Shown here in pieces: positions 32,359 to 38,098 of a DNA stretch of 64,000 nt. Positions within the stretch are counted from its first letter, which is position 1; each line of letters starts with the position of its first letter. The notes below the pieces were generated by a model. The model had not been told where the DNA came from. It ran no database searches and saw only the letters and a program-made list of their open reading frames with translations. Origin of the DNA: Eggerthella lenta DSM 2243 (GTDB taxonomy: Bacteria; Actinomycetota; Coriobacteriia; Coriobacteriales; Eggerthellaceae); the NCBI RefSeq assembly GCF_000024265.1, contig NC_013204.1, forward strand, positions 2,282,180 to 2,346,179, written 5' to 3'. The position numbers and the translations under genes were made by a program.

Positions 32359-33258
32359 CTACACCATCCTCAGAACCGTGACTCCCTCGGGCACGGCGCC
32401 CTCGTCAACGGTGATCTCCTCGTAGTCGTCGATGGAACGCGGAGCCTCCACGCCGGCTTTCTTCTGGGTTGAAACAGCGTCGAACAGCTTGTACGACGGC
32501 GCATTGCCAAGCTCGCTGTCATGCTTGAACACCACGAGCGCACGAACCGCCATCTTGCCGCGCGCAGCCGAGTGATCGTGCTCGAACATGTTGACGATAG
32601 CATCCCACAGAAGGGCGAGGTCGTCCTCCGAGAATCCCGTCGATTTGCGCGCCAAGTTCGCCGAAACGTAGCCCTCCCCGCGATAGAGCGCATAGGGAAC
32701 CACGTACTTGCGACCCATCTCGGTGCCCTTCTTCTCGGCATCGGCTTCGGTGGTGATGGCTACGCGCGTGATGGTGACCTCCTGCGGAATGATAGGATCG
32801 ACGCTGCGCGCGAACGTCAGCTGCACCGGCCCGCGCACCTGCCCGCAGTTGAGCGCGCCTTTGACGAACGTGGTCATCACCGCACCGAACGTGCGCACAT
32901 CATAGAATGTCTCGCACATGAAATCGCGAATCTTCTCGTCGAGCGCAGGATCGTCTTTCTTGAGTTTTTTGATGGCTTTATCATCGGTTCCCACGCCGAA
33001 CTCGTCGAGCGCCCGTCGGTCGCTCGCATTGAGCGGCACGCCGTCCTTGATGTATATCTCGAAACCCCGCTCGCCTTCCTTCACCGTCTCCACGTAGTTG
33101 CGGATCTTGCGCTTCAAGCACACGTCAGTCACGATGCCGAGGCTCGTCTCGGGATCGATGCGCGGCATGTTGCCGGCATCGGGATCGCCGTTGGGGTTAC
33201 CGTTCTCCACATCGAAGTACACGACGAAGTCGTAACGGTTCTTGATCGTATCGCTCAT
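32359..33258 (-). CDS. cas7: Type I-C Cascade backbone Cas7 (Csd2)
   Basis: This 299-residue RAMP protein forms the backbone along the crRNA spacer. The N-terminus NRYDFVVYFDVENGNPNGDPDAGNMPRID is the Csd2 signature. NCGQVRGPVQLTFARSVDPI and the C-terminal SDLALLWDAIVNMFEHDHSAARG-like segment also fit. It lies three bases after cas8c. It is under the control of the promoter described at 35731-35759. Confidence 0.97.
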   Translation of the reverse strand: MSDTIKNRYDFVVYFDVENGNPNGDPDAGNMPRIDPETSLGIVTDVCLKRKIRNYVETVKEGERGFEIYIKDGVPLNASDRRALDEFGVGTDDKAIKKLKKDDPALDEKIRDFMCETFYDVRTFGAVMTTFVKGALNCGQVRGPVQLTFARSVDPIIPQEVTITRVAITTEADAEKKGTEMGRKYVVPYALYRGEGYVSANLARKSTGFSEDDLALLWDAIVNMFEHDHSAARGKMAVRALVVFKHDSELGNAPSYKLFDAVSTQKKAGVEAPRSIDDYEEITVDEGAVPEGVTVLRMV

Positions 33259-33261
33259 GAT

Positions 33262-35010
33262 TTAACCCTCCTGATCGTTTTTCTTCTCGTAACGTTTCTG
33301 CGTTTGATGGTAGTATCCCAGGATAAAGCCACCCTGTTCCGACAGCGAAAGACGTTTGGGAAACCCTTGGATTCCGTTGCATAACTCCTGTATCTGCTTT
33401 TCGTAGAACACCGCGAGTCCTTTTCGGTCGCCCGCGATCTTATTCAGATGGTTCTGGCCAAGCTTCATGATGACCGGGAACACCACACTCGGCATCGCGT
33501 TCGCCGAATCGAAGTACCGGTTCTTGATTGTAGTTTTTATGCCCGGATTGGCCTCTTCCTGCACGCGTTCCAGCACGGAGAACAATCGTCCCAGCATATA
33601 GGGGGTATCTCTTTTCGTTTCGTCGAGTGACACCGTCACCGCCTCCTTGTTTAGATTCTTGATTAGATACGCTTTAATGATCGCCACACGTCCGCGCGTC
33701 ACCTTGCGCGTGCGGCGGTCATCGTCGTCCTGCGTCGCTCGCACTCGCAACAGCACGTTCGAGTACAGCGCTTCGGGATACGGCGCATCGGCCAAGATCG
33801 AACGCATGAGAGCGCCTGCGAGCACCGACGTAGCGGCCGCTTGCTTGGCATTCGGGTTCGCCGTCTCCGCAAGCAGGAAATACGGCGAGAGGTATTTCTT
33901 CTCGTACGGCGCGCGGGTGATATCGATACGGTCGTAATGCTTCCGCAGATTGTCCAGCATAGAGCCGAACATGCCAGACATGAAGAACCTTACCGACAGC
34001 CTTGCCGCATTCGGGGCAAGCCCTAACACGTGGAATGTCGCATCGAGCTTTGCGCTTTCCACCTGCCGTCCCGCCGCCAAGGCACCCATGATCGCGTCGA
34101 GCTTTTCATCAGGGTCGTCTTCGCCCTCAGCTCGTTCTCCAAAGTTCGGGTTGATGGCTTGCGAGAACAAGGCTGCACAATCTTCATCATCGCTATCGGC
34201 CCAGTACACGATCGTCGTATCACCAAGGCGAATATGATGATTGCGATCAGACAGTAGATAGTTCAGGGCAGTCGTGTAAGCGAACGTCACCCGTTCGCTT
34301 ACTGGGGCATTCAACCCCTGCTCTTCATCGTGCCCGTACGACTCAAACGCACGCGCGTTAAAGCCCACGAGCGATGCCCCCATCGACTGCGCCCCCATCA
34401 CGCCTTTGATGGCAGGATGCAGTCGAGCGATAGGAGCCTTCTCGCCAGTGACCAGGCATGTCGTTACCTCTTCGTCTTTGCCGGATCGTTCGCAGCGTCG
34501 ATCCCATGCCGCGCAGATGTCGCGATCGGCGAGGGCTTCGCAACCCTGAACGAAGAACACGAGATTGCCTCCCGCAAGCAGCCCCTCGCCAGCATCCACC
34601 ACACGAGGGTGCTCCGACGCCTCCTCCACATTCCACGTTTCAAAGTAAGACCGGATCGCGGTTGCAACCGGCGAATCGACATCAGCGAGCAGCTCGAGAT
34701 GCTTCCGCCGTGCATCGTCGAAGCACCGACGGGCGCGCTCTGGTTTGCCTTTGGCATCGAGACCTAGCAGATAGGTCGCGTTATCGCACAAGAGATTGGC
34801 CGTCACGCCCACAGTGCGCTTCGCTTGCTCGGGCACCTCCCTCGTCCAGCCCCGCTTCTCCTCGGCAGGAATCACGTTGACCAACTCGCCATCGGGCGAA
34901 AGCTCCAGCATGAAAGCCACCTGGCGCGAACACCATCCCGGTCGCGCGATCCTTTCGGGATGTTCTCTAGACAGCTGCTCATAGTAGTCGGCAAGCGCTT
35001 GCAGGATCAT
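33262..35010 (-). CDS. cas8c: Type I-C Cascade large subunit Cas8c (Csd1)
   Basis: This 582-residue large subunit recognises the PAM and recruits Cas3. In I-C systems the small subunit is usually made from an internal start in the same gene. The N-terminus MILQALADYYEQLSREHPERIARPGW and the segments HIRLGDTTIVYWAD and MLGRLFSVLERVQEEANPGIKTTIKNRYFDSANAMPSVVFP are typical of Csd1. The start overlaps the cas5c stop by four bases. The candidate internal start for a Cas11-like product was not fixed. Confidence 0.96.
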   Translation of the reverse strand: MILQALADYYEQLSREHPERIARPGWCSRQVAFMLELSPDGELVNVIPAEEKRGWTREVPEQAKRTVGVTANLLCDNATYLLGLDAKGKPERARRCFDDARRKHLELLADVDSPVATAIRSYFETWNVEEASEHPRVVDAGEGLLAGGNLVFFVQGCEALADRDICAAWDRRCERSGKDEEVTTCLVTGEKAPIARLHPAIKGVMGAQSMGASLVGFNARAFESYGHDEEQGLNAPVSERVTFAYTTALNYLLSDRNHHIRLGDTTIVYWADSDDEDCAALFSQAINPNFGERAEGEDDPDEKLDAIMGALAAGRQVESAKLDATFHVLGLAPNAARLSVRFFMSGMFGSMLDNLRKHYDRIDITRAPYEKKYLSPYFLLAETANPNAKQAAATSVLAGALMRSILADAPYPEALYSNVLLRVRATQDDDDRRTRKVTRGRVAIIKAYLIKNLNKEAVTVSLDETKRDTPYMLGRLFSVLERVQEEANPGIKTTIKNRYFDSANAMPSVVFPVIMKLGQNHLNKIAGDRKGLAVFYEKQIQELCNGIQGFPKRLSLSEQGGFILGYYHQTQKRYEKKNDQEG

Positions 35011-35669
35011 CGGAACACCTCGCTTCCCGCCACGTCGATCACGCCATTGCGCATAACAGCTCGAAAAAACATCGGCATAATGTTCTGCGGATCGACGTAA
35101 TCCATGTCGTAAAGCATTAAGCCGAGATCGCGCTCGCCGGAATCTGCATAGCACCCCTGGGGAGCGTCTCCGTCACATGCCTTGAAGTGAGCTGCGAACT
35201 CACGAGTTCCGAAGTACGGGGTTGAGTAGCATTGCCCTCGATCAAGCCTCCGCCTTATGATATCCTTGAATTTGCCGGGGTTGTCTTCGGGCTTCGCTCG
35301 GTCGGTCAATTCGAAATGCGCTTCTATCACATAGCGCACGTCGGTGAGGATCAGTGAGGCTCGTTGCTGGATATCCTCTTTCGTGTTTATGTAGGGCAAC
35401 TCGCCTCCGTGCGTCATGACGCTTCTTATGGAGCTGGCGAGCGCTTTCGATTTAACCTCGTTGCGCCGCACGTTGGTGAAGCGAATGGGATTGAGCACGT
35501 GTATTCGATCGATCGTATATCGCATACCCGGATGCCAGTATATCGATTCGATCAGACCACGAGCCGCCGAAGGCGTGATCACATCGTACGAAACGCGTTC
35601 CACCGACAGCTCCGGCCTCGTGAAGAGCGCCCGCTCGCCCCAAACCTCGATTTGGATTCCATATGCCAT
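35007..35669 (-). CDS. cas5c: Cas5c, pre-crRNA endoribonuclease of type I-C
   Basis: This 220-residue protein takes the place of Cas6 in type I-C. It cuts the repeat 11 bases before its 3' end and then caps the 5' handle in Cascade. It starts MAYGIQIEVWGERALFTRPELSVERVSYDVITPSAARGLIESIYWHP, the Cas5d signature. ATG 35669 has AAAGGAGGT eight bases upstream. It is the first gene of the cas5c-cas8c-cas7-cas4-cas1-cas2 operon. The frame stays open upstream to 35789, but that stretch is the promoter and untranslated leader. Confidence 0.97.
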   Translation of the reverse strand: MAYGIQIEVWGERALFTRPELSVERVSYDVITPSAARGLIESIYWHPGMRYTIDRIHVLNPIRFTNVRRNEVKSKALASSIRSVMTHGGELPYINTKEDIQQRASLILTDVRYVIEAHFELTDRAKPEDNPGKFKDIIRRRLDRGQCYSTPYFGTREFAAHFKACDGDAPQGCYADSGERDLGLMLYDMDYVDPQNIMPMFFRAVMRNGVIDVAGSEVFR

Positions 35670-35690
35670 ATGATACCTCCTTTCATTTTT

Positions 35691-35728
35691 TTCATTCTTA
35701 TAAAGGTTTAGGTTAAAATCTACTGCAT
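35691..35728. promoter_or_regulatory. Putative self-target (PAM plus protospacer) over the cas5c transcription start
   Basis: TTC at 35691-35693 is the type I-C PAM. The next bases on the plus strand, ATTCTTATAAA from 35694, match the first 11 bases of the pseudo-spacer at 35842 except at position 6. Over 19 positions, 14 match. Mismatches at 6, 12 and 18 are the positions flipped out in type I R-loops. A 34-base footprint would cover the predicted start near 35724. Confidence 0.7.
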
Positions 35729-35730
35729 TC

Positions 35731-35759
35731 GTTATACCATCAGAAATTGCAACCGTCAA
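35731..35759 (-). promoter_or_regulatory. Promoter of the cas5c-cas2 operon
   Basis: On the minus strand TTGACG (35754-35759) and TATAAC (35731-35736) are separated by 17 bases, close to consensus. Transcription would start near 35724, leaving a 55-base leader with AAAGGAGGT before cas5c. This separates cas5c-cas2 from cas3. Confidence 0.75.
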
Positions 35760-35813: not shown

Positions 35814-35903
35814 GTCATTGCGTTGCAATGGGGGTTGAAACATTCTCATAAACAGTTAAGCGGTAACGGCACAGGGGCGCTCCAAGCGCCCCTGTGCCGT
35901 TAC
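35814..35903 (+). ncRNA. Putative Cas-regulating crRNA-like RNA (CreR-type)
   Basis: The element copies the layout of the array repeat: GT, a 6-bp stem (CATTGC at 35816-35821, loop GTT, GCAATG at 35825-35830), then exactly 11 bases, GGGGTTGAAAC (35831-35841). The genuine repeat has GT, an 8-bp stem and the 11-base CGGGTTGAAAT, so the handles agree at nine of 11. A 22-base pseudo-spacer (35842-35863) follows, then a strong hairpin. The pseudo-spacer partly matches a TTC-flanked site in the cas5c promoter region. I infer a crRNA-like guide that lets Cascade repress its own operon without enough pairing to trigger Cas3. It is divergent from the cas5c operon and convergent with cas3. Expression is not shown. 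Confidence 0.7.
35863..35903. terminator. 18-bp perfect hairpin between cas3 and the crRNA-like element
   Basis: GTAACGGCACAGGGGCGC, a TCCAA loop and the exact complement of the first arm form an 18-bp stem that overlaps the cas3 stop codon. No T-run follows on either strand. Its place, between convergent cas3 and the crRNA-like RNA, suggests a bidirectional transcription barrier. Confidence 0.6.
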
Positions 35904-38098
35904 AGGAATATCCCCTTTCCTTCTTCGTTTTTCAGATCCAATCCGCGTTGATCCGAGTAGCATGTTCCATCGACCAGCACGAACAAGTCCTCGGCAAGAG
36001 TCTCTATCTTGCCGCTCCGCAGTAAAGCCTTGATATCCCCATCGTAAACGCCGACGGCGTAGCGCGAGAGCCTGCGTATGGTCGAGCGATTCGCGAAACC
36101 GGTTTTCACCGCGAGGATATCGGATTCGATTTCCGGATCGGGTATCACCACCGTGCGCGAGCCTTCCTCGATCATGCGGAAATCGTCGGCCGCGCGCTTG
36201 AAGGGTATGTTGAGGGATTTTAGGCTGAACCCTTCGAGATCGCGCAGCACTCCCGATGCGTCGAGCGCTCCTTCGCGCACGGCGTACAGCCTTGCAAAGT
36301 ATGCGTCGATCGCCTCGAGAGCCCCGATATCGCACGACTCGCATGCCGCTCCCTCCATCTCGCTTATGACGCTTCGTGCTATCGCCACTTTCTGCGCGAC
36401 ATCGGAAGGCAGAGCGTAGTCGTCGGCGGGCTCGAACACGTGCACGATGCTTTCCTCGGCCGACTGCCGGCCTTCTCGATTGCATCGCCCAGCCGCTTGC
36501 ACCATGCTGTCCACACCAGCGAGCGCGCGGTAGACCACAGGGAAATCAACGTCGACGCCCGCTTCTATCAGGCTCGTCGCCACAACCCGGCAAGTCCGGC
36601 CCTCGCGCAGACGTTGCCGGATCTCGTTCAGCACGCGCTCACGATGTACAGGGTGCATGAGGGTTGTCAGATGGTACGAGTCTTCCCCGTCGAGCAGCTC
36701 ATGCAGCCGCCTCGCCTGCTTGCGGCTGTTCACGATGCAAAGCGACTGGTCGCGATCTGCCAAACGTGCTGCAAGATCGTCATCACCGAGCACGCCGTCG
36801 AAACGATACGAGACGCGTTTAAGCTTTTTGAACAATTCCGACGGCGCAGGTGCGATCTCGCGCACGGCGAACCCCTTTCGTCCAAGCATCCCGTTGAAGG
36901 CCGGCTGCGTCGCCGTGCACAGTACCACCGAACAACCGTAGTTCGCCACGAGCTCTATAAGCGCGCGCAGACAAGGAAGCAGCTGCTTGGTGGGAACCAT
37001 CTGCGCCTCGTCAAGCACGATCACGCTGTTCGCGATATTGTGCAGCTTGCGGCAGCGCGATGTCCGATTAGCGTAGAGCGACTCGAAGAACTGTACGTTC
37101 GTCGTCACCACGATGGGCGCGTCCCAATTCTCGGACGCTCGGCGAAGCGCCTTCTTCGCGTCGCCTGACTTGTACGACTCCACCTCTTCGTCGAAATCGA
37201 AATCGAAGTTCGCGTGATGCTCCAAAACGCTGCGCTCTCCCAGCACATCGCGAAAGACGCGGGCGTTCTGCTCGATGATCGACGTATAGGGCACGGCGTA
37301 TACTACGCGACGTGCATCGCGCTTAACCGCATGCTCGAGCGCGAATAGCAGCGACGCGTACGTTTTTCCACCTCCGGTGGGAACCGTTAGCGAGAAGAAA
37401 CCGGGGTGGTTCGAAGCAGCTCTGATGCATGCATCCAGCACCTGGCAGCGCGTTTCGTTGAGCGCGCTCGTCGGCGGGTAGAAGCGAGCTACCTCTTCTT
37501 TCAAGCAACCCAGGAGATCGACAAGGGATTGCTCCGAAAGAGGATCGCGTCCTTCGCCCTGCATGAATCTCTCGGTGCAAAGGAAGTCCGCATCCACCAA
37601 ACAGGAGAATACCATGCGCGTCAAAAACGAAAGCGAATAGGCTCCGTCCTCCCGATCGCGAGAAACAGGCAGAACGGAAGGGCCTTTCGGAACGTTAAGC
37701 TCGACTTCGCGCGCATAGGCGGCGCAATCGGGGATGCTACCGTGTTGTGCCCGCAGCAGTCGACCGCGCAGAGTCGGACAGTCTTCGACATCTGCCGTAG
37801 TGCCCCCGTCGGGAAGCCCTGCATGATGGCCGGCAACGCAGTAAGCGAGCAATTTCAAACCCAACTGATCAAGCAGAGCAGCCCCCGCCGTGGAGTGATC
37901 GACTTTATGCCCGTCGCATAGGATGCGGTTCTGGAATTCCGTGGAATACTTGCCGATGTCGTGCGCCATTCCTGCGGCATAGGCCCACGATTCGGCCCCG
38001 AACGGCCGCGCGAACTCGGCCGCCATCTCGGCCACCTCCCGCAGGTGGTCGGCCACTTCTTCGATGCGCCCGTCTTCGGCAACATGGGATACGTGCAT
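35900..38098 (-). CDS. cas3: CRISPR-associated helicase/nuclease Cas3 (type I-C)
   Basis: This 732-residue effector degrades target DNA after Cascade binding. The N-terminal HD nuclease shows YAAGMAHDIGKYSTEFQ. The SF2 helicase has Walker A TVPTGGGKTYASL, the DExH-type box VLDEAQMV and RVVATSLIEAGVDVDFPVVYRAL, so both activities look intact. GGGAGGT lies before ATG 38098. The 240 bases upstream are AT-rich and should hold its own promoter, but I could not fix the boxes. It is separated from cas5c by 230 bases with the 18-bp hairpin, so it is probably a separate transcription unit. Confidence 0.97.
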   Translation of the reverse strand: MHVSHVAEDGRIEEVADHLREVAEMAAEFARPFGAESWAYAAGMAHDIGKYSTEFQNRILCDGHKVDHSTAGAALLDQLGLKLLAYCVAGHHAGLPDGGTTADVEDCPTLRGRLLRAQHGSIPDCAAYAREVELNVPKGPSVLPVSRDREDGAYSLSFLTRMVFSCLVDADFLCTERFMQGEGRDPLSEQSLVDLLGCLKEEVARFYPPTSALNETRCQVLDACIRAASNHPGFFSLTVPTGGGKTYASLLFALEHAVKRDARRVVYAVPYTSIIEQNARVFRDVLGERSVLEHHANFDFDFDEEVESYKSGDAKKALRRASENWDAPIVVTTNVQFFESLYANRTSRCRKLHNIANSVIVLDEAQMVPTKQLLPCLRALIELVANYGCSVVLCTATQPAFNGMLGRKGFAVREIAPAPSELFKKLKRVSYRFDGVLGDDDLAARLADRDQSLCIVNSRKQARRLHELLDGEDSYHLTTLMHPVHRERVLNEIRQRLREGRTCRVVATSLIEAGVDVDFPVVYRALAGVDSMVQAAGRCNREGRQSAEESIVHVFEPADDYALPSDVAQKVAIARSVISEMEGAACESCDIGALEAIDAYFARLYAVREGALDASGVLRDLEGFSLKSLNIPFKRAADDFRMIEEGSRTVVIPDPEIESDILAVKTGFANRSTIRRLSRYAVGVYDGDIKALLRSGKIETLAEDLFVLVDGTCYSDQRGLDLKNEEGKGIFL

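What the first reader, a model, noticed from the sequence alone, without database searches (positions are those of the whole stretch)
35691..35728. The pseudo-spacer matches a TTC-flanked site over the cas5c promoter start
The pseudo-spacer starting at 35842 and the site starting at 35694 agree at positions 1-5 and 7-11 and differ at 6. Mismatches at 6, 12 and 18 are those that type I Cascade tolerates, because every sixth base is flipped out. The bases just before the site are TTC, the known I-C PAM. The footprint would cover the predicted transcription start near 35724. The expected effect is negative feedback: free Cascade represses cas5c-cas2, and loss of Cascade (for example through anti-CRISPR proteins) relieves it. 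Pairing is too short to license Cas3 cleavage.
Basis: partly seen in the sequence, partly recalled or inferred. Interest (0 to 1): 0.92.

Follow-up and report, generated by a model that had tools for sequence, protein, structure and literature searches.

The report
Guide RNA silencing its CRISPR operon
Between two genes of a bacterial CRISPR defence system lies a small guide RNA gene that very probably steers the system's own DNA-binding complex back onto its promoter, a built-in thermostat that dozens of related loci share, each with its own matching guide and target sequence.

Summary
A degenerate type I-C repeat (35814-35841, +) precedes a guide at 35842 whose nucleotides 1-5 and 7-11 match a TTC-flanked site at 35694, just inside the cas5c transcription unit. 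Shuffled promoters give this 2 times in 20,000.

Of 124 non-redundant type I-C loci, 39 carry 40 repeat-like handles upstream of cas5. For 33 of the 40, the following bases match a site in the same stretch at 1-5 and 7-11, no PAM demanded; the bases before it are TTC 29, TTT 3, TTA 1. Starting the guide 1-4 nt off gives 0-2 of 40; swapping guides between loci, 6 of 4059. Positions 6 and 12 are at background, 13-17 are matched, beyond 18 nothing.

So this is a CreR-type element: a crRNA-like RNA guiding Cascade onto its own cas5c-cas2 promoter. Repression is inferred, not measured. A review lists CreR in I-B, I-E and V-A; the two primary surveys were not readable, so priority for I-C is open. 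In some Lachnospiraceae loci similar guides face a DUF3990 toxin-like pair placed before cas5.

The parts
35691..35693 (+). TTC, PAM of the target site
   Evidence: sequence; upstream trinucleotide of the 33 sites (this one included): TTC 29, TTT 3, TTA 1
35694..35728 (+). protospacer-like target (35 nt footprint); paired at 35694-35698, 35700-35704, 35708-35710
35724..35724 (-). predicted cas5c transcription start (approximate)
   Evidence: about 7 nt from the -10 box; prediction only
35731..35736 (-). -10 box TATAAC of the cas5c promoter
   Evidence: prediction
35754..35759 (-). -35 box TTGACG of the cas5c promoter
   Evidence: prediction
35814..35841 (+). pseudo-repeat (degenerate type I-C repeat); stem 35815-35821/35825-35831, handle GGGGTTGAAAC 35831-35841
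   Evidence: array repeat GTCACTCCCCGCATGGGGAGTGCGGGTTGAAAT; fold
35842..35858 (+). guide, functional 17 nt (runs to about 35862)
35863..35903 (+). 19-bp stem-loop that ends the guide; overlaps the cas3 stop codon; terminator or 3' cap of the RNA
   Evidence: z -7.0 for the whole 94-nt stretch
35007..35669 (-). cas5c, first gene of the proposed repressed operon (start codon placed by eye)
   Evidence: TIGR01876 E 5e-52 for 35007-35678
33262..35010 (-). cas8c (start codon placed by eye)
   Evidence: TIGR01863 for 33262-35019
32359..33258 (-). cas7c
   Evidence: TIGR02589
31694..32356 (-). cas4
   Evidence: TIGR00372
30666..31697 (-). cas1c
   Evidence: TIGR03640
30365..30664 (-). cas2
   Evidence: TIGR01573
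29033..30208 (-). CRISPR array (33-nt repeats; left end degenerate)
35900..38098 (-). cas3, upstream and not under the target promoter
   Evidence: TIGR01587

Best explanation
A solitary, degenerate type I-C repeat plus a 17-nt guide, transcribed away from cas5c and closed by a stem-loop, makes a crRNA-like RNA (CreR type). Cas5c processes it, it assembles with Cas8c and Cas7 into Cascade, and this complex binds the TTC-flanked site just inside the cas5c transcription unit and blocks transcription of cas5c-cas2. The partial match (1-5, 7-11, part of 13-17) gives binding but probably no Cas3 cleavage. When ordinary crRNAs or anti-CRISPR proteins take Cascade away, the promoter is released. Shown here: anatomy, the single genomic target, PAM, co-variation of guide and target in relatives, and the 6-nt periodicity. 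Inferred: transcription, processing, assembly, repression and sensing.
For: Window pair. Relatives: 33 of 40 handles (the window's own included) with a 10/10 site in their own stretch, against 0-2 of 40 for reading starts shifted by 1-4 nt and 6 of 4059 for swapped guides; TTC before 29 of the 33 sites without being demanded. Positions 13-17, not used to select the pairs and only used to choose between sites of equal seed, matched 26, 30, 28, 21 and 20 of 33 against backgrounds of 0.29, 0.34, 0.51, 0.27 and 0.33; 6 and 12 at background; 18-35 near background in 26 pairs. The 33 elements lie in cas3-cas5 gaps of at least 150 nt (33 of 57), none in the 57 shorter gaps; for 10 of the 124 loci the gap was not measured. 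TTC and TTT are the PAMs reported for a type I-C system used for gene repression (PMC10865793, passages). A haloarchaeal CreA has the same 1-5/7-11 pairing beside TTC (PMC8501985, passages and one section).
Against: No RNA or expression data. The window's own match is at the weaker end (mismatches also at 13 and 14). The -10-like box before its guide is poor (4 of 6) and the stem-loop has no T run after it. Seven of 40 handles gave no 10/10 site: L039, L061, L070 and L125 have 9/10 beside TTC, L129 and L058 have at most 8, and the first of two tandem repeats in L028 has at most 5 beside TTC. The three closest Cas5c relatives (L004, L005, L018; 84-93% identical, L018 over only 44 residues) show no element, so it is easily lost or gained. 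None was found in 22 loci of other classes or phyla.
Confidence: 0.86

Rival explanations
1. The RNA is an antisense sRNA that pairs with the cas5c mRNA leader rather than guiding Cascade.
For: In the window the guide is complementary to the cas5c mRNA leader (target on the + strand, mRNA on the - strand).
Against: 7 of 33 targets lie on the other strand, where the guide has the same sense as the mRNA and cannot pair with it (9 of 30 in the differently chosen set). A PAM and unread positions 6 and 12 make no sense for RNA-RNA pairing.
Confidence: 0.04
2. The element is a CreA-like antitoxin: Cascade represses a toxin, and the cas genes only ride along.
For: Same architecture as CreTA. In Lachnospiraceae loci L035, L036, L038 (10/10) and L060 (9/10) the target lies before a DUF3990 gene.
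Against: In the window only about 55 nt separate the predicted start from cas5c, with no room for a typical protein gene; a very small RNA toxin was not excluded.
Confidence: 0.05
3. A decayed mini-array or a chance duplication of the promoter, without function.
For: The repeat is degenerate and the guide matches only partly.
Against: Matches begin exactly at nucleotide 1 after the PAM for 33 of 40 handles with mostly different seeds; shifted and swapped controls are near zero.
Confidence: 0.03
4. A viral decoy or RNA anti-CRISPR (Racr) left in the locus.
For: Racrs are solitary repeats, and a type I-C one is known (PMC10651486, passages).
Against: It lies in the host cas locus with a matching target; exact patterns for two of the guides (window and L010) gave no hit in the viral contigs.
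Confidence: 0.02

Closest known systems
CreR, cas-regulating RNA (Liu et al. 2023, Cell Host Microbe, not held; known here from passages and sections of reviews PMC12737573, PMC13131331, PMC12948488)
   Same: crRNA-like RNA, partial match to the cas promoter, Cascade as repressor, expected to sense crRNA load and anti-CRISPRs
   Different: One review names types I-B, I-E and V-A; this is I-C. The operon controlled starts at cas5c and leaves cas3 out. The guide is cut short by a strong stem-loop (whether CreRs share that I could not check).
CreA of CreTA (H. hubeiense, PMC8501985, passages and section 12)
   Same: Pairing at 1-5 and 7-11 beside TTC; one-repeat forms with a terminator instead of a second repeat exist
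   Different: Target is a toxin promoter; type I-B; Cas6 processing. No typical toxin gene fits in the window.
Standalone repeats / mini-arrays in cas loci (Shmakov et al. 2023, NAR gkad495; not held, recalled)
   Same: Survey of repeat-derived guides aimed at cas promoters, mostly type I (recalled)
   Different: I could not check whether I-C examples are listed.
Natural single-guide RNA and Cas9 autorepression (Workman et al. 2021, Cell; seen only as a reference)
   Same: A CRISPR effector is guided to repress its own promoter (recalled)
   Different: Cas9 and tracrRNA, no Cascade (recalled)

Membership tests
CreR | solitary repeat-like unit outside the array, inside the cas locus | tested here: met
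   35814-35841, compared with the own array repeat
CreR | guide partly complementary to the cognate cas promoter, next to the PAM | tested here: met
   33 of 40 handles
CreR | small RNA is made and processed by the Cas processing enzyme | not testable with these tools
   no RNA data; hairpin and handle kept
CreR | Cascade-dependent repression of cas transcription | not testable with these tools
   needs a reporter assay
CreR | relief by anti-CRISPR or excess crRNA | not testable with these tools
   needs an assay
CreTA / CrePA | target promoter drives a toxin gene | tested here: not met
   for the window: about 55 nt from predicted start to cas5c, too short for a typical protein gene; a tiny RNA toxin was not excluded
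Racr (RNA anti-CRISPR) | encoded by a phage, prophage or plasmid, not by the cas locus | tested here: not met
   lies between host cas3 and cas5c and has one genomic target there
type I-C CRISPR-Cas | Cas5c, Cas8c/Csd1, Cas7/Csd2, Cas1c set | tested here: met
   each over its curated I-C cut-off

The most novel reading that the evidence does not exclude
The cas3-cas5 gap of type I-C loci in gut Bacillota and Coriobacteriia is a dedicated site for self-regulating guide RNAs whose guide is capped at about 17-25 nt by a stem-loop. They build a regulatory Cascade that represses cas5c-cas2 but leaves cas3 out, and in some Lachnospiraceae the same wiring holds down a DUF3990 toxin-like pair placed at the head of the cas operon, so that loss of Cascade both raises cas expression and releases the pair.
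Probability: 0.45. Interest if true: 0.72.

Novelty: new member of a known kind. Interest (0 to 1): 0.56.

Why it matters
It brings type I-C into the set of CRISPR systems that appear to regulate themselves by RNA, with guide and target matching over dozens of loci with mostly different seeds. The 33 natural guide-target pairs act as a mutational scan: they show which guide positions selection reads (1-5, 7-11, 13 to about 17), which it ignores (6, 12), and where pairing stops (about 18). That is directly useful for off-target rules and for designing Cascade-based repression. The rule also lets such elements be found by a short script.

Tried and rejected
Antisense-RNA reading: rejected because 7 of 33 targets lie on the mRNA-sense strand. 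Chance: rejected. Selection against pairing at 6 and 12 (to avoid self-cleavage): not supported, matches there are at background rather than below it (12 of 33 against 0.28; 7 of 33 against 0.22). Rfam: five matches, all far below the gathering scores (four microRNA-model rows and one Streptomyces sRNA). Phage-borne copies of two guides (window, L010): none in viral contigs. Elements before cas3 in loci without one in the cas3-cas5 gap: none found, though only 36 of the no-element loci reach more than 300 nt beyond cas3. Wider distribution: none in 16 loci from other classes of the phylum (L149-L164) and six plasmid loci from other phyla (L165-L170; 6 of 56 plasmid records with a match were fetched), whose stretches end about 1.5 kb upstream of cas5. 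Clustering guides at 4 or fewer seed differences merged nearly all AT-rich seeds and was useless. A type I-C structure paper (PMC11417383) held none of my search terms in its stored text.

Rows dropped: 139 loci were reduced to 124 by shared 25-mers; 8 of the 124 had less than the full 600 nt upstream, one of them almost none. Loose handles (TTGAAA[CT]): 68, of which 30 had 9-10/10 beside TTC; strict handles: 40.

Full report
WHAT IS THERE. The window lies in a 3.63-Mb single-contig genome. One relative used here, G061, has a contig of the same length as the Enteroscipio rubneri record of L019, and the two loci share their sequence, so the window's family is that of Enteroscipio. On the minus strand runs a complete type I-C locus: cas3, a gap, cas5c, cas8c, cas7, cas4, cas1, cas2, then an array of 33-nt repeats. 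In the gap, on the plus strand, sits GTCATTGCGTTGCAATGGGGGTTGAAAC (35814-35841). It keeps the GTC start, a hairpin and the GGGTTGAAA handle of the array repeat (GTCACTCCCCGCATGGGGAGTGCGGGTTGAAAT), although the stem letters have changed. A guide follows at 35842, and from 35863 a perfect 19-bp stem-loop.

THE MATCH. The guide ATTCTCATAAACAGTTA faces ATTCTTATAAAGGTTTA at 35694, directly after TTC. In 1-17 the mismatches are 6, 12, 13 and 14. A 10/10 seed (1-5, 7-11) beside TTC arose in 2 of 20,000 shuffles of the promoter. The pattern TTCATTCTNATAAA occurs once in the genome, as does its reversed control: the cas5c site is the only target, which is not in itself improbable. The site lies between the predicted cas5c start (about 35724) and the ribosome-binding site. 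The promoter boxes TTGACG-17-TATAAC are a prediction; the consensus scanner reported none because its last -10 base must be T.

RELATIVES. In the 600 nt upstream of cas5 (less in 8 loci) I looked on both strands for the handle [TCG]GG[AG]T[TA]GAAA[TC] without regard to any target: 40 handles in 39 loci, 39 of the 40 pointing away from cas5. Taking the next bases as guide and asking for a 10/10 seed site in the same stretch, with no PAM asked for, 33 of 40 have one (8 loci of the first two sources, window included, and 25 of the third). The three bases before the site are TTC in 29, TTT in 3 and TTA in 1. Starting the guide 1-4 bases early or late gives 0-2 of 40. Giving each of the 33 guides to the other 123 loci gives a 10/10 site in 6 of 4059, 2 of them beside TTC or TTT. 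TTC and TTT are the PAMs given for a Neisseria type I-C system (PMC10865793, passages). Four further handles have 9/10 beside TTC (L039, L061, L070, L125). L129, L058 and the first of two repeats in L028 have no convincing target.

THE PAIRING RULE. Over the 33 pairs, position 6 matches in 12 (background 0.28) and position 12 in 7 (0.22), that is, they are not read. Positions 13-17, which were not required for a pair and served only to choose between sites of equal seed, match in 26, 30, 28, 21 and 20 (backgrounds 0.29, 0.34, 0.51, 0.27, 0.33). In the 26 pairs, position 18 matches in 11 (background 0.36) and positions 19-35 are near background. This is what a Cascade-bound guide with every sixth base flipped out predicts (structural knowledge, recalled), with pairing over about 17 nt. 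Seeds differ by a median of 7 of 11 positions; 9 of 528 locus pairs differ by 3 or fewer, so a few loci are related and not fully independent.

ANATOMY ACROSS LOCI. The 33 elements sit in cas3-cas5 gaps of at least 150 nt (33 of 57 such loci; 0 of 57 with shorter gaps; gap not measured in 10). Pseudo-repeats can form a stem ending at the handle more often than shuffles do (28 of 37 at score 5 or more; shuffles 36%). In 24 of the 30 loci the best stem-loop after the guide starts at guide nucleotide 18-35; in the other six (L007, L057, L069, L071, L088, L132) my simple finder placed it later. A -10-like box (5 of 6 or better) lies 34-60 nt before the guide in 22 of 33 loci, against 25% in shuffles; in the window it is only 4 of 6. 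In one search, 28 of 30 35-nt footprints overlap the best-scoring predicted promoter; these are predictions in a short region and the overlap has no chance control. Targets lie on either strand (26 and 7 of 33).

HOW IT WORKS. Best reading: the RNA is processed like a crRNA, loads Cascade, and the complex sits on the start of the cas5c unit and blocks it. Supply of Cas5c/8c/7 thus limits itself. Anything that takes Cascade away (crRNA, anti-CRISPR) lifts the block. Because the target is downstream of cas3, only cas5c-cas2 would be controlled. Shown: sequence anatomy, guide-target matching in relatives, PAM and periodicity. Inferred: every biochemical step. The antisense-RNA rival fails on the 7 targets of mRNA sense; the chance and duplication rivals fail on the controls above.

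WHAT IS KNOWN. Reviews describe CreR RNAs that guide Cascade or Cas12a to the cas promoter and sense crRNA and anti-CRISPR (PMC12737573, passages and sections 9 and 10; PMC12948488, passages); one lists I-B, I-E and V-A (PMC13131331, passage). CreA of H. hubeiense pairs at 1-5 and 7-11 beside TTC (PMC8501985, passages and section 12). Degeneration of such repeats ties a guide to its own system (PMC9458426, abstract), which fits the altered stems here. A structured-RNA survey reports a palindromic candidate about 300 bases upstream of cas3 in I-C loci (PMC9067536, passages); whether it is related is unknown. In the listings of ten paper searches I saw no type I-C CreR, but the two key papers are not held (Shmakov 2023; Liu 2023), so I do not claim priority. 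Verdict: a real CreR-type element in type I-C; a new member of a known kind.

A SIDE FINDING. In six Lachnospiraceae loci (L035 fragmentary, L036, L038, L044, L051, L060) a DUF3990 gene and a 146-aa partner stand upstream of cas5, in five of them between cas3 and cas5 (for L044 no cas3 was seen in its short stretch). The L036 proteins match PF13151 (E 3e-52) and the PADLOC candidates PDC-M10A and PDC-M10B; the other loci were recognised by similarity to them. Of the five with DNA well upstream of the pair, L035, L036 and L038 have a 10/10 TTC target before DUF3990, L060 has 9/10, and L051 has no room. A model of the DUF3990 protein (mean pLDDT 75.8) resembles the RES toxin of Xre-RES weakly (Foldseek E 0.012, probability 0.98, TM 0.47; no match below E 0.001). 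This resembles CreTA/CrePA wiring, but toxicity is untested.

Noticed in passing
L035, L036, L038, L044, L051, L060 (upstream of cas5): DUF3990 plus a 146-aa partner (PADLOC candidates PDC-M10A/B) head the cas5 operon; in L035, L036, L038 (10/10) and L060 (9/10) a solitary-repeat guide matches a TTC site before DUF3990, a possible Cascade-held toxin-like module.
   Followed up: partly
L028, about 290-390 nt upstream of cas5: Two tandem pseudo-repeats with a spacer of about 34 nt between; only the second guide has a target.
   Followed up: no
L058, immediately upstream of cas5: A repeat-like handle in cas5 sense directly before the ribosome-binding site, with no good target; unexplained.
   Followed up: no
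L129, 173 nt upstream of cas5: Complete-looking pseudo-repeat whose guide has at most 8 of 10 seed matches beside TTC: possibly decayed.
   Followed up: no
L032, cas3-cas5 gap of 708 nt: A RelB-like ORF (PF04221, E 1e-9) lies in the gap on the strand opposite to cas5.
   Followed up: no
L004, L005, L018: Closest Cas5c relatives of the window (84-93% identical; L018 over 44 residues only) have short gaps (102-152 nt) and no element: recent loss or gain.
   Followed up: partly
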